Part shown: positions 26,301 through 35,300 of the stretch, piece after piece
Numbering within the stretch: the stretch's first letter is position 1
Layout: each line of letters starts with the position of its first letter
Notes under the pieces: generated by a model
What the model saw: the letters and a program-made list of their open reading frames with translations, nothing else
Told to the model about the DNA's origin: nothing
Databases searched by the model: none
Made by a program: the position numbers and the translations under genes
Assembly (NCBI GenBank): GCA_016490735.1
Contig: JAEMWC010000051.1
Span: 417,001-481,000, forward strand
Reading direction: 5' to 3'
Length of the DNA: 64,000 nt
DNA from: Pachyseris speciosa
Taxonomy: Eukaryota; Cnidaria; Anthozoa; Scleractinia; Pachyseridae

Positions 26301-29300
26301 GCTCTCTAAATTTCAATCTGGGTTTAGACCACTACACTCCACCTGTACAGCTCTTATAGATATGACGGATAATTGGTATCTCAACACTGACAATGGATTA
26401 ACAAATGCAGTCCTGTTTATTGATCTCAAAAAGGCATTTGATACCGTACTTATGCCTTGCTGACAGATATCTCTACAGTAGAACCCCAATACTTATTACC
26501 ATTCCAAAAATAGATTCCATTATTTTGGCAGTGTATGTGCACTCTGGTAACGCATACAGTGCAGGCCAGAATTAAGCGAACTACGCATACGCGTTTTATA
26601 CGCAGCAAAAATGCGTATGCACGTCTTTTTAGACTCGTCTATATGTGCGCGTATTTTCCATTGTTATTCATCGTCGTAATTTCTCTTTGTGTGGTATTGT
26701 CAAATAAAACAAAAGAATTCACCAGGTTGCCGACAAACACAAAATTTGCATTTTGTGAAACCAGCCAGTGACAGCTATCATATTTCGAATCTTATCCGCT
26801 TCGTAAATATTGGCTCCTAACCGGTATTGAATATTCCGCGCATGTAGAGGAAAACATAAAGATAATTAATCGAAAACAACCAGGTTGCCGACAAACACAA
26901 AATTTGCATTTTGTGAAACCAGCCAGTGACAGCTATCATATTTCGAATCTTATCCGCTTCGTAAATATTGGCTCCTAACCGGTATTGAATATTCCGCGCA
27001 TGTAGAGGAAAACATAAAGATAATTAATCGAAAACAACCAGGTTGCCGACAAACACAAAATTTGCATTTTGTGAAACCAGCCAGTGACAGCTATCATATT
27101 TCGAATCTTATCCGCTTCGTAAATATTGGCTCCTAACCGGTATTGAATATTCCGCGCATGTAGAGGAAAACATAAAGATAATTAATCGAAAACAACTCGT
27201 TCGAAAAAAGGAACCTCTCTGTTTCTAACTTGAATAGCAGTTGAAACCTCCTAGTATCTCAGTCGTCACAAAATTTCATGTCGAAAGCTATCGTATTTCA
27301 GAACACCGTCGCTCACTTCGCAGATGGTGCAGATAAGAAGTCATGAATCTTTGACACCTAGTTAACGAGAAGGAATTTAAAAAAGATAGACAGTCAAAGA
27401 CTTCATGTGGCTACTGCTTTAGAATCTTCCCATACACGTGCGAAACGTAGGTCAGTTGTTGAGGAAGCAAATCACCAGCCTTTACTCTTTACATGTTCTG
27501 AGAGTCACGCAAGGCACACTTTTCTGAACAGATGTTATTAGAATTTTCGCTCAGTTTATAGTATCTGATCTTGCTTGCAATTTTTATTTCAAGGGCAAAG
27601 AGGCCGAACGGAATCCCGAACGACGGCATTTCGGATGGAAAAACGTTTCCGAAAAGCAAGCCGGAAGGACAACAGTTTCAGACCTAACTTAGTTTCTTTA
27701 AGGGCCTGATTACATGAGCCGGGCTGGCCCGGTTAACCGGGCTGGTTTGAGTTTGCCGGGATCTCGGCATGTTTGTTAAACGCAACAAAAATCAACTTCG
27801 CGATTACATGACAACCGGGCCAGCCCACACCGAAGCAGCCCGGCTAACCGGGCCAGCCCGGCTCATGTAATCAGGCCCTAAGATACTTAAATATCATTCA
27901 GGTCGAACGGCTAGGTCGCAGGCTTAAGTCTGACTTGCGTGTCATGGTCATTCTCAAAGAAGTGAACTTGCGAAACAGCTTGTTGAGACATTTGAAACTC
28001 CTTTCCTGGAAACATTTTGAGCCTAAAATTAAAATAACTGAGCAAGACTCGCATTCAAAAACGATGGTCAACGATAATGGTGCAAGAACTTGTTAAAGAG
28101 ATGAATGTTAAGCGTGTAGATTTCTGTACAGTAATTTGCATAGTAACATGATCTCTGCAAGTGCAAGAGATGTTTACCACGGAGACCAAAATAGGTTTTG
28201 AGGGTCTTTTCAAGGGTAAATCACTTTGAATCGAAATTTTGTGAACCGTGCGATGAAAAACAATCGATGCTGAACAGATATCCAACGTAATGAGTAACGG
28301 GTTATCTCGCCTTATCTCGGTAACCACCCGCTAAACACGATTGAAAACCACACATATTGAAAGTCAACACTTCTTAACTGATTTATTTAACAATATACAC
28401 ACGGTAAAATTATTCTAAATTACACTTTTCTCTGCGTAAAAAAAGTTAACGACTGGCGTACTTTGTTTTGTTTTTCCTCTTACAACCAAATAAATCTAAT
28501 AAAGTCTAATCATTGCGGGTGTCTTCTTTCTTGTTGCGTAAATAGGAGTCTATAGCTTTACGGCAATCCCGCCACAAATTTTCTTGTTGGCTTACGGATG
28601 TTGGGAAGTAACGAAAAACAAGCTCTCTAATCTTACTAATTTTGTCTGGGTTAAGGGCCTCTTTATTTCCGACTCCCCTCACATTGCGGTTTTTCAGTTC
28701 ATGCGGCTGAAAAAAATGCCGCAACAGTTGAACTGCGAAGTTCTTTCCAGACGTTGCTTTTGTTCTGAGGTGAAATATAACAGAGTCGTCCTGAGCGCAG
28801 TTGACGGGAAGTTCCGGCAGGACATCCATGACTGTTGACTGTGCGGCCTGCGGTGTTGCACTAGCGGGTGGATGGAAAGGACTGATATCTTCTGAGGGGC
28901 CACTCAGCACCGCGATTAAGGCATCGATTCTCTCCAGGACTTGGGCTTGCTGTCGGCAAAGCAGCTGCAAGTGCCCCAGGATTTCTGTATTGGCATCATG
29001 TGTGCAGCACTGGCCACCGAACAAACTTCTTGGTAACGTTCTCCTTGCCGCGGACAGAACATGTCCGTGAACAGGAGTTACTGGCGGAGGCTGGACAGCG
29101 TGGATAGGAGTTACTGGCGGAGGCTGAACAGCTTGGATAGGAGCAACTGGCGGAGGCTGAACAGCTTGGATAGGAGCAACTGGTGAAGGCTGGACAGCGT
29201 GAACAGGAGTTACTGGCGGAGGCTGGACAGGGTGGATAGGAGCAACTGGTGAAAGCTGGACAGTGTGGACCGGAGTTACTGGCGGAGGCTGGACAGCGCC

Positions 29301-32300: not shown

Positions 32301-35300
32301 CTGTAGTCACGTTCACGTTGTTGAGCCAAGTATGAAAATATGATATCTCCGGTTCTATTTGGGCTACAATAACGCTTAAAACGGGAAAATACTCTATCTT
32401 TGATAGCAAAAGTTATGATCCAAATTATTACGACGCGCTAACTGTGGCAATGATATTTATTTGCGAGTGAAAACTGCGCGAGTTGAAACGAGAGCCGACA
32501 AGCGTTATGACACATTCTTTTGTTTAGTTTAGCATCCCGGCTGGCCGTTGAGACAATATCTCCGGTTCTATTTGGGCTACACTCTACCTTGAAGGCAAAA
32601 TTTATTATCTGAATTATCACAACGCACCGAGTATGGCAAGAATATTTTTTGCGACTGAAAACTGTGTGCCGTTGAAAGAAGAAACGCTTTAACGTACGAG
32701 ACAAACATTAAGTTAAATACCGTCGCCCGCGCGGTGAAAATGCAGAGGTCTTGAGGAACTCGGACCTCCTAGCTCACTGTTTTATCCTCAGAAATCATCA
32801 TTGCGGCAAGGAATAAATAAGAAAAGCGTCTACAAATATAAACAAACAAGTTAAATCTCTTCAAGGTCTACGCAGTGCTCGTTTCGCAAAATACAGATCT
32901 TTAAATTTAGAAACTCTGCACTTCCGGTGTTTTATTCCTCTCTTAGCTTGTCACACACAGAAATCGGACTGTTGTAGTGCTTGATATCTTAAATTCTATG
33001 GATTTTTTTATTTCTTTGTTTCGTTTCGTTTCGTTTCATTTCGCAAAATACAGTAAGCTTGCTGTAATTTAAGATATTTCAAAGTTTCTTCTTTTATGCG
33101 CTGAACAATGCGACATGGAGTTGTTCTTGCCCTGAGCCGGTTCTACGATGAAGTCGGCAAGTGCAGTCATACTTTGTCCTTCTGAAAAGCTTTTCTCCGG
33201 CTATTCAAAAGAACAATGAAATAGCAACAATAGGAAAACAATGAGCTAGCTCATACATACTAATGCGTCTGACTAGATGCGCATCTGCAGATTTTTAGAC
33301 GCGTATACGCATCCGCAGCAGACGGGTTTTAAGCGTATGTTTTGGTTCGCTTAATTCTGGCCTGCACTGTATATGGTGTCAAAATGTGGTAAGAACAAAG
33401 AAGTACTGTACAGCCACAGGTGAGCATCCTCCAACTGTTATCAGAGTACAAACACAGTGCCAAATGGAATCTACTTGTTTTATACAATGTTTTTTTTTTT
33501 ACTTTCTTTGGCTAATGATGTTATTTGTGCATCTATACTTTAATTTCAAACTTCTTTGGACCAATCAAAATTCGAGGATTACACCATCCATTATATAAAC
33601 GAGGTACTAGGGGACTGGTAAAAATGGCACCGGTTCATTATAATGTGGGGTGGGGTGGGGGTGTTGGCTGTTATTTATTTGTGGGAAAACAACTGAAAAA
33701 GTCATTATACCAAGGTTTTGTCTTGGAGATAAAAAAAGGGGATAAAGCCAGATAAATACAGTACCACTCAAAAGTAAGTTACCAGTTACATCGCGTTTCC
33801 TGTGCAACACAATTCACGTTGCGCGCTACTCGATTCACGTAGCGCAAGAGTCACTGAAGCAAAAATTTTTGGCATGCATCTCGGATGACTTTACAATGCA
33901 AAATCAATTAATTTTGTGTAGTGCTCTACAAATGCAGCTATTGTTCAACGGAATACATGTAGTTCCCTTCTATGGAAATACACACAGCATCATGGAGCTC
34001 ATCACGAATTGAAATGGCGCAGTCCTCTTGTTAACAAATTGACGAAGATCTATTGCGAATGATTACTGTTCCTTGCTCCTGCTAACGCTGAAATGACAAC
34101 TTTTATCGGTTCTGTTGTCGATACGTTATATGGTCGTGTTTTCTGGATTTGTTCTGAAAGTTAAGTGCTAGTTCACCACAAGCAAATGGCTAGTGGTGAC
34201 TGCTTACTGTATTTGCTTTCAGATCACAAATTTGCATAAAACCGCAAAATTACTGGCTATGTAACTTGAAACTTTCCACTCAGTAGATGTGACACAACAC
34301 TTGTTAATCATTACTCACTTGAGAAGGTGAAAAACCCAAAGCACGAATAATCTTATGTAGAAATTGGAAGTTCATCTGGCAATGGTGACGTTTGAGTCGA
34401 TAATTACGACTTAAGTACGACTTAAGCTTATGTGAAATGTTTATTCAACACGCCGGCACTCAATCGTATATTTTCTACTTTGAAAGACTGAAAAACATTT
34501 TCCTGGGCTTATCTTTGTAAAGCAGGGCTACAGTAGAGTTTGTCCACGTAAAAAGATTTGCTGAAGGAAGCCTTGCACATGCTGAGCTTACTTCGTCGAT
34601 CAATCGATTGATCGAAAAGAACGATAAGCTTATGTATCAGTCAATTCCAAAAGTGTCCAAATGCGGACCTGTATGGAGACCTTCCAAGTCAATTCCAAGA
34701 TTGCTCAAAGGAGGCTCAAGCTAGCAGGACAAGCTAAACGGCATCCAGAGCTCATCCTGCACAAAGTTCTCTTATGAGAGCCACAGCATGGTCGGACAAG
34801 GCAAGTCTTCATTCTGATCGAGCTGCTGTACTTCAAGCAAAATATATGAGTCAATGTTTTGTTTCATGGTATGCAAATTTTTGGCATCTGCTCACGGTTC
34901 AGTGGGATCATAGTTTCAGCATCCTTTAACAAAGTGATCTGTACCTGTTTTAAATGTAAACATTTAGCGTACAATTTCTTGTTGGTGTTCTTCAAATTTT
35001 GCAAACTACAGGTTTTGATTTTGCAAAATTAATCACAGGTTTTCATTACGTTTTGTCCCATTATGTTTCACAAAGTACAGTAAGCCATTACAACGCTCAC
35101 AAGTGCGATAGGTTTGTCCAATTTATTCAATTTGTTTGACCTGAACAATGCTCGTCATTGCGGTCCATTTGTCCAATATTTATTTCTCAAAGAAATCAGT
35201 CCAGCATAAAGCTAATTACTTTTTCAACTCAAAACTCGATAGACTCAACTCTAGAGACTCGAAACGCGACTCTTGGCTCGAAATTTTCAAGAATTAAGCA

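What the first reader, a model, noticed from the sequence alone, without database searches (positions are those of the whole stretch)
26557..33369. Tc1/mariner-type element with a BEN-domain accessory gene
A 6.8-kb unit with 25-bp identical CAGTG ends and TA duplications holds a DD34E transposase gene and, divergently, an intact three-exon gene for a BEN-domain protein with a nuclear-signal-like linker and a proline-rich repeat region. Typical Tc1 elements are about 1.5 kb with one gene. An accessory BEN protein could bind the subterminal repeats, guide the transposase or silence the element. I know of no described Tc1-class element with this layout, but could not search.
Basis: partly seen in the sequence, partly recalled or inferred. 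Interest (0 to 1): 0.88.

Follow-up and report, generated by a model that had tools for sequence, protein, structure and literature searches.

The report
Two-gene Tc1 transposon carrying BEN protein
A 6.8-kb jumping gene of the Tc1 family in an animal genome (probably a coral or sea anemone) carries, besides its transposase gene (broken in this copy by one stop codon), a second, unbroken predicted gene for a BEN-domain protein that likely binds the element's own ends, and parts of both genes turn up joined in three related sequences, so animal Tc1 transposons are probably not always one-gene machines.

The parts
26555..26556 (.). TA flank, left (target-site duplication, inferred)
   Evidence: sequence; inverted repeat I2
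26557..26581 (+). left terminal inverted repeat, 25 bp
26721..27196 (+). subterminal array, 158-bp unit x 3, 100% identical; each unit holds the palindrome CACAAAAT-TTGC-ATTTTGTG
27701..27879 (.). 179-bp hairpin (47-bp arms, 96% complementary), probably a nested MITE
28506..29384 (-). BEN gene exon 3: proline-rich repeats, predicted helix/coiled coil (exon residues 131-161), BEN domain (about 195-287), stop
29749..29942 (-). BEN gene exon 2: acidic stretch and basic, nuclear-signal-like linker
30088..30277 (-). BEN gene exon 1: about 63 residues predicted as an all-beta small domain (low confidence, pLDDT 64.5)
30278..30521 (.). 244-bp divergent spacer between the two start codons (presumed two-way promoter)
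30522..30783 (+). transposase exon 1 (paired-like HTH part)
30890..31366 (+). transposase exon 2 (catalytic D155, D240)
31449..31723 (+). transposase exon 3 (catalytic E275; in-frame TGA at 31565-31567)
31947..32668 (+). right subterminal repeats with core ATATCTCCGGTTCTATTTGGGCTACA
33345..33369 (-). right terminal inverted repeat, 25 bp
33370..33371 (.). TA flank, right
   Evidence: sequence

Best explanation
This is a copy of a two-gene Tc1-family DNA transposon in which a DD34E transposase gene, interrupted here by one stop codon, is paired head to head with an unbroken predicted gene for a BEN-domain protein that likely binds the element's own repeat-rich, CpG-dense end regions and would help the transposase act there. 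Shown: the ends, both reading frames, the stop codon, the BEN family match, and antisense transposase joined to BEN sequence in three relatives. Predicted: the splice sites, the BEN fold and the coiled coil. Inferred: in an uninterrupted relative both proteins would be made from the shared 244-bp spacer; BEN protein would enter the nucleus by its basic linker, pair up through its coiled coil, sit on repeated sites at both ends and bring transposase to the terminal repeats, much as the Myb-like protein does in Harbinger. Dimers bound at both ends could also bridge a 6.8-kb element, longer than a Tc1 transposase usually has to span. The present copy would depend on transposase supplied by another copy.
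Against: No DNA binding, expression or transposition was tested. No second full-length copy with these ends was seen. Two other TA-flanked units in the window with related or similar end sequences (18211-24441; 33759-38786) show neither gene by tblastn. The chimera evidence is uneven: P0137 rests on 20 residues, and with 59 queries a hit of E 2.7e-4 has an overall expectation of about 0.016; P0137 and P0145 do not reach the Pfam BEN model, being cut short or decayed; their contigs were not seen. None of the 120 listed of 1317 transposase relatives shows BEN sequence. The ACGC excess in the ends is largely what their own base and dinucleotide make-up gives (p 0.07, 0.04, 0.07 and 0.85 at the four ends of two elements), and the ATGCG motif was picked after the fact. 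By sequence the BEN profile finds solved BEN domains only weakly (best E 0.0078). The transposase of this copy is interrupted.
Confidence: 0.5

Rival explanations
1. Anti-silencing partner: the BEN protein binds the subterminal repeats and keeps the element free of repressive chromatin or DNA methylation, as VANC does for VANDAL elements, without touching the transposase.
For: VANC proteins bind tandem repeats in noncoding regions of their own element and remove silent marks (PMC10398659, passages read); this element has repeats at both sides, and the BEN fold matches readers of unmethylated CpG best (PMC11472053). CpG is not depleted in the element (0.99 inside against 0.69 in the window).
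Against: No functional data; BEN proteins are more often described as repressors or insulator factors (recalled). High CpG can also mean a young insertion, and the gene-less second unit at 18211-24441 has it too (1.04).
Confidence: 0.2
2. Self-limiting repressor: the BEN protein binds the ends or the shared promoter and shuts the element down; copies with a broken transposase and an unbroken BEN gene, like this one, would act in trans.
For: BEN unbroken while transposase is interrupted; chimeric relatives keep BEN sequence and only a piece of the transposase, a bit like repressor-making deletion derivatives of P elements (recalled).
Against: One copy; the stop may be recent. The chimeric reading frames lack BEN exons 1-2 as read here, two of three do not reach the Pfam BEN model, and none is known to be expressed.
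Confidence: 0.13
3. Passenger: a host BEN gene was captured once and is carried without a role in transposition.
For: Transposons capture host genes (general knowledge); 59 relatives with diverse sequence were found, and the genomic place of 56 of them is unknown here.
Against: Antisense transposase is joined to BEN in three relatives, same strand and order, and BEN domain and coiled coil are conserved while linkers drift; a passenger should decay.
Confidence: 0.12
4. Chance nest: an ordinary 1.5-kb Tc1 element sits inside a larger BEN-bearing element, or the reverse.
For: The window holds several TA-flanked CAGT... pairs, some overlapping.
Against: No inverted ends were found around the transposase (ungapped scan); antisense transposase and BEN meet in three other sequences.
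Confidence: 0.05

Closest known systems
Canonical Tc1 elements (Tc1 family of Tc1/mariner)
   Same: DD34E transposase with Tc3-type HTH, short inverted ends of about 25-30 bp, TA target
   Different: Canonical ones have one ORF and a mean length of about 1300 bp (PMC7325037, passage read); this has two genes and 6813 bp with long subterminal repeats
Ciliate multi-gene Tc1/mariner elements (Tec, TBE, Sardine, Thon, Anchois)
   Same: Tc1/mariner-type DDE transposase plus further genes; Sardine is about 6.7 kb; TBE carries a zinc-finger protein, Tec one ORF on the complement (PMC3464196, PMC7325037, passages read)
   Different: Their extra genes are a tyrosine recombinase, a zinc-finger protein or unknown ORFs and hosts are ciliates; no BEN gene is mentioned in the passages read. 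Here the genes look animal and have predicted introns
Harbinger (transposase plus Myb-like protein)
   Same: Second gene for a DNA-binding protein; in Harbinger it interacts with the transposase, allows nuclear import of both and binds the ends (PMC9179366, passage read)
   Different: Another transposase superfamily and another DNA-binding domain; role here only inferred
VANDAL / VANC (plants)
   Same: Accessory protein and noncoding tandem repeats within the element
   Different: No sequence relation tested; anti-silencing is shown for VANC (PMC10398659, passages read), not here
Kolobok lineages with accessory proteins (KolX, nuclease, helicase)
   Same: DNA transposons whose lineages differ by an accessory gene (PMC9587614, passages read)
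   Different: Other superfamily; no BEN domain mentioned in the passages read

Membership tests
Tc1/mariner superfamily, Tc1-type | DD34E catalytic core | tested here: met
   D155, D240, E275, 34 residues between D2 and E; DDE_3 2.3e-13
Tc1/mariner superfamily, Tc1-type | N-terminal HTH of Tc3/Sleeping Beauty type | tested here: met
   HTH_Tnp_Tc3_2 9e-12, 45.5 bits against a cut-off of 31.5
Tc1/mariner superfamily, Tc1-type | Inverted ends flanked by duplicated TA | tested here: met
   25 bp identical, TA on both sides; no empty site seen
Canonical one-gene Tc1 element | Single ORF, about 1.3 kb | tested here: not met
   6813 bp, two genes
BEN-domain proteins | PF10523 above the curated cut-off | tested here: met
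   43.2 bits, cut-off 23.2
BEN-domain proteins | BEN fold | tested here: met
BEN-domain proteins | Sequence-specific DNA binding | not testable with these tools
   no binding data; the CpG-selecting arginine was not mapped residue by residue
Ciliate Tec/Sardine type | Tyrosine recombinase gene | tested here: not met
   only BEN, transposase and antisense-transposase ORFs of 130 aa or more inside the element; an intron-split one is not excluded
Harbinger | Harbinger transposase with Myb-like second gene | tested here: not met
   transposase is Tc1-type; second gene is BEN
VANDAL/VANC-like anti-silencing | Accessory protein binds own repeats and removes silent marks | not testable with these tools
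   repeats present; no chromatin data

The most novel reading that the evidence does not exclude
An anthozoan lineage of Tc1 transposons has made transposition a two-protein, chromatin-gated reaction: a self-encoded BEN dimer reads unmethylated CpG-dense sites at the element's own ends and licenses transposase assembly only on ends that the host has not methylated, so the element senses its own epigenetic state before it moves.
Probability: 0.12. Interest if true: 0.88.

Novelty: new variant of a known kind. Interest (0 to 1): 0.62.

Why it matters
Tc1 elements are treated as the simplest one-gene DNA transposons and are used as gene-transfer tools for that reason (general knowledge). An animal Tc1 lineage that has kept a DNA-binding partner gene would be a natural test of whether a Tc1 transposase can come to depend on, or be governed by, a second protein. 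It may also be one source of BEN genes in coral genomes: of the 59 relatives listed only two bear an organism name, and both are corals.

Tried and rejected
Genome-wide copy count: the genome search on the window's own assembly with 26557-26900 was sent 16 times in the same form; each time the machine was busy or out of reach.

Public contigs: 22 bases of the end in viral contigs gave 0; BEN queries in viral contigs and genome contigs and transposase queries in both gave pattern matches but no confirmed relative; these collections are viral and prokaryotic, so absence says little.

Nested 1.5-kb Tc1: disfavoured, because no inner inverted ends were found (ungapped 14-mers, 13 or more matches, 900 bp or more apart, 30281-32000 only) and because of the chimeras.

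BEND3-like ACGC sites in the ends: counts of 6, 5, 6 and 1 per 150 bp exceed a maximum of 3 in 339 background stretches at three of four ends, but a first-order Markov control built from each end explains most of it (p 0.07, 0.04, 0.07, 0.85), so not kept as evidence of binding.

Exon 1: no Pfam match at a useful level, no solved relative by sequence (best E 0.77), and no fold match at E 0.001 for the low-confidence model, so no domain name is given. The model was made from 64 codons, the last of which runs into the predicted intron.

Residue mapping of the CpG-selecting arginine of BANP/BEND3 onto this protein: not done, as no residue alignment to BANP was available.

Rows dropped: the BEN tree used the own sequence and 30 of 59 relatives (left out: P0141, P0149, P0151-P0156, P0159-P0179; the antisense prefixes of the three chimeras were cut off). 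Alignment A4 used 32 of 59 relatives plus the own exon 3. Only 120 of 1317 transposase relatives were listed, and only the 7996 BEN candidates sharing most words were scored.
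Full report
What was checked. The unit at 26557-33369 is 6813 bp long. Its ends, CAGTGCAGGCCAGAATTAAGCGAAC at 26557-26581 and the reverse complement at 33345-33369, are identical over 25 bp and each is flanked by TA. Of six TACAGT...ACTGTA pairs found in the window, allowing up to 7 mismatches in 25 and distances of 300-12000 bp, this is the only perfect one. It is therefore a real, probably young, mobile-element boundary.

Transposase. Predicted exons 30522-30783, 30890-31366 and 31449-31723 give 337 codons with D155, D240 and E275 and 34 residues between the last two. 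Pfam gives DDE_3 (2.3e-13) and HTH_Tnp_Tc3_2 (9e-12); the only solved relative at E 0.01 or better is Sleeping Beauty SB100X (1.2e-23). A database search gave 1317 relatives at E 1e-3 or better among 2756 candidates, 120 listed; the best, which is also named, is from the sea anemone Exaiptasia diaphana at 60% identity. One in-frame TGA (31565-31567, codon 286) lies after the catalytic core. This copy probably cannot make full-length transposase, unless the stop is an assembly error or is skipped.

Is it one element or two? No ungapped inverted pair of 14 bases with 13 or more matches, 900 bp or more apart, was found in 30281-32000, so no nested 1.5-kb Tc1 is visible. More telling is evidence from other DNA. 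A profile search with the BEN end of the protein listed 59 relatives. Matched back to the window, three of them begin with sequence that is the antisense of the transposase and then continue into BEN sequence. In one search these are P0145 (residues 3-52 against 31668-31504, E 7.3e-14), P0126 (1-28 against 31044-30961, E 3.1e-6; its BEN part starts at residue 31) and P0137 (1-20 against 31546-31487, E 2.7e-4; its BEN part starts at residue 20). In the same run, 127 hits outside the BEN gene reach E 10; after these three the next best has E 0.021, and five sets of shuffled sequences reach 0.011 at best. P0137 is the weakest: with 59 queries its overall expectation is about 0.016. The join points differ. 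P0145 and P0137 are near-copies of P0002 and P0003 in the tree, which show no antisense match. The simplest reading is internal deletion, in other element families, of the layout seen here: reading the - strand, transposase antisense first, BEN after it. In the tree P0145 and P0137 lie in two subclades of one well-supported clade of nine; P0126 sits apart on a long branch whose place is unsure. The pairing is thus likely older than their split. Against: two of the three (P0137, P0145) do not reach the Pfam BEN model, being cut short or decayed; I did not see the contigs themselves; and 56 of 59 relatives carry no such mark, which says little, since those read look like single-exon reading frames.

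Relatives in the window. A second unit at 18211-24441 (6231 bp, TA-flanked, 3 of 25 mismatches between its ends) shares the end architecture: 72 bp near its right end is 82% identical to the matching part of the first (E 1e-14), and its subterminal repeats, spaced 179-228 bp, share a core with the right-hand repeats of the first. It shows no BEN or transposase sequence by tblastn and holds a LINE.

How it most likely works. Shown: ends, reading frames, repeats, BEN family match, recurrent joining of the two genes' sequences. Predicted: splice sites, fold, coiled coil. Conservation is concentrated in the BEN domain and coiled coil (0.75 and 0.75, against 0.58 in the proline-rich part and 0.53 in the linker; 33 rows). 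Inferred: the BEN protein binds end regions and helps the transposase. The analogies are Harbinger, whose Myb-like protein interacts with the transposase, allows nuclear import and binds the ends (PMC9179366, passage read), and VANDAL, whose VANC proteins bind their own noncoding tandem repeats and lift silencing (PMC10398659, passages read). The end regions are CpG-dense (observed/expected 2.00 left, 1.24 right, 0.99 inside, 0.69 for the window), and ATGCG occurs 12 times in the four 150-bp ends of the two elements against 0.39 expected from the rest of the window; but that motif was chosen after scanning all 5- and 6-mers, and a Markov control leaves the related ACGC excess at p 0.07, 0.04, 0.07 and 0.85. 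So binding sites are a hypothesis.

What is known. Tc1 elements are described as having about 30-bp ends, one ORF and a mean length of about 1300 bp (PMC7325037, passage read). Elements with several genes exist within the superfamily in ciliates: Tec, TBE, Sardine, Thon, Anchois (PMC3464196 and PMC7325037, passages read). Searches for BEN domain with Tc1 and transposon (2 papers), with transposase (12 papers), with transposable element and captured (5 papers) and with mariner (3 papers) listed no paper that, by title and start of abstract, is about a Tc1 element with a BEN gene. One search (any two of BEN domain, DNA transposon, cnidarian) listed 20 of 115 papers and none of the 20 holds the term BEN domain; one search listed 15 of 622, none holding Tc1 mariner. 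The library holds open-licence PMC papers only, and Repbase was not available, so a catalogue entry may exist.

Host. Not named by any tool. The nearest named relatives are anthozoan: Exaiptasia (60%) and Paramuricea (52%) for the transposase, Oculina and Desmophyllum for BEN; more distant named transposase relatives are from a sea cucumber and a lancelet (49% and 51%). An anthozoan host is inferred.

Verdict. It is a new variant of a known kind: an animal Tc1-type element whose lineage carries a BEN partner gene. The role of the BEN protein is open and testable.

Noticed in passing
window 18211-24441: Second TA-flanked unit with related ends and subterminal repeats but no BEN or transposase match; holds a LINE-like reverse transcriptase ORF (20439-21869) and an inner inverted pair 19338-19369 / 22858-22889.
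   Followed up: partly
window 33759-38786: Third TA-flanked CAGTACC-type unit close beside the first, with long imperfect inverted ends (pieces 76-83% identical over about 900 bp) and possible nested copies (alternative pairs 33759-36307 and 36631-38786).
   Followed up: partly
window 40265-42050: Fourth TA-flanked unit, 1786 bp, ends CAGTGTGTTGCCCAGTTTCC / CAGTATGTTGCCCAGTTTCC, 2 of 25 mismatches; content not examined.
   Followed up: no
window 27701-27879: 179-bp hairpin with 47-bp arms inside the element, probably a MITE that landed in it; by eye the flanks look like a 3-bp TAA duplication.
   Followed up: no
window 57666-63596: ORFs that by eye look like a Polinton/Maverick (DNA polymerase B, integrase); not profile-searched.
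   Followed up: no
P0141: A 107-aa protein identical to the end of the window's BEN gene is listed with 2 member sequences and a 931-bp contig, so this stretch may be held in a further record.
   Followed up: no
window 44634-56722: ORFs that by eye look like parts of a large ankyrin/LRR/ROCO (LRRK-like) host gene; not profile-searched.
   Followed up: no
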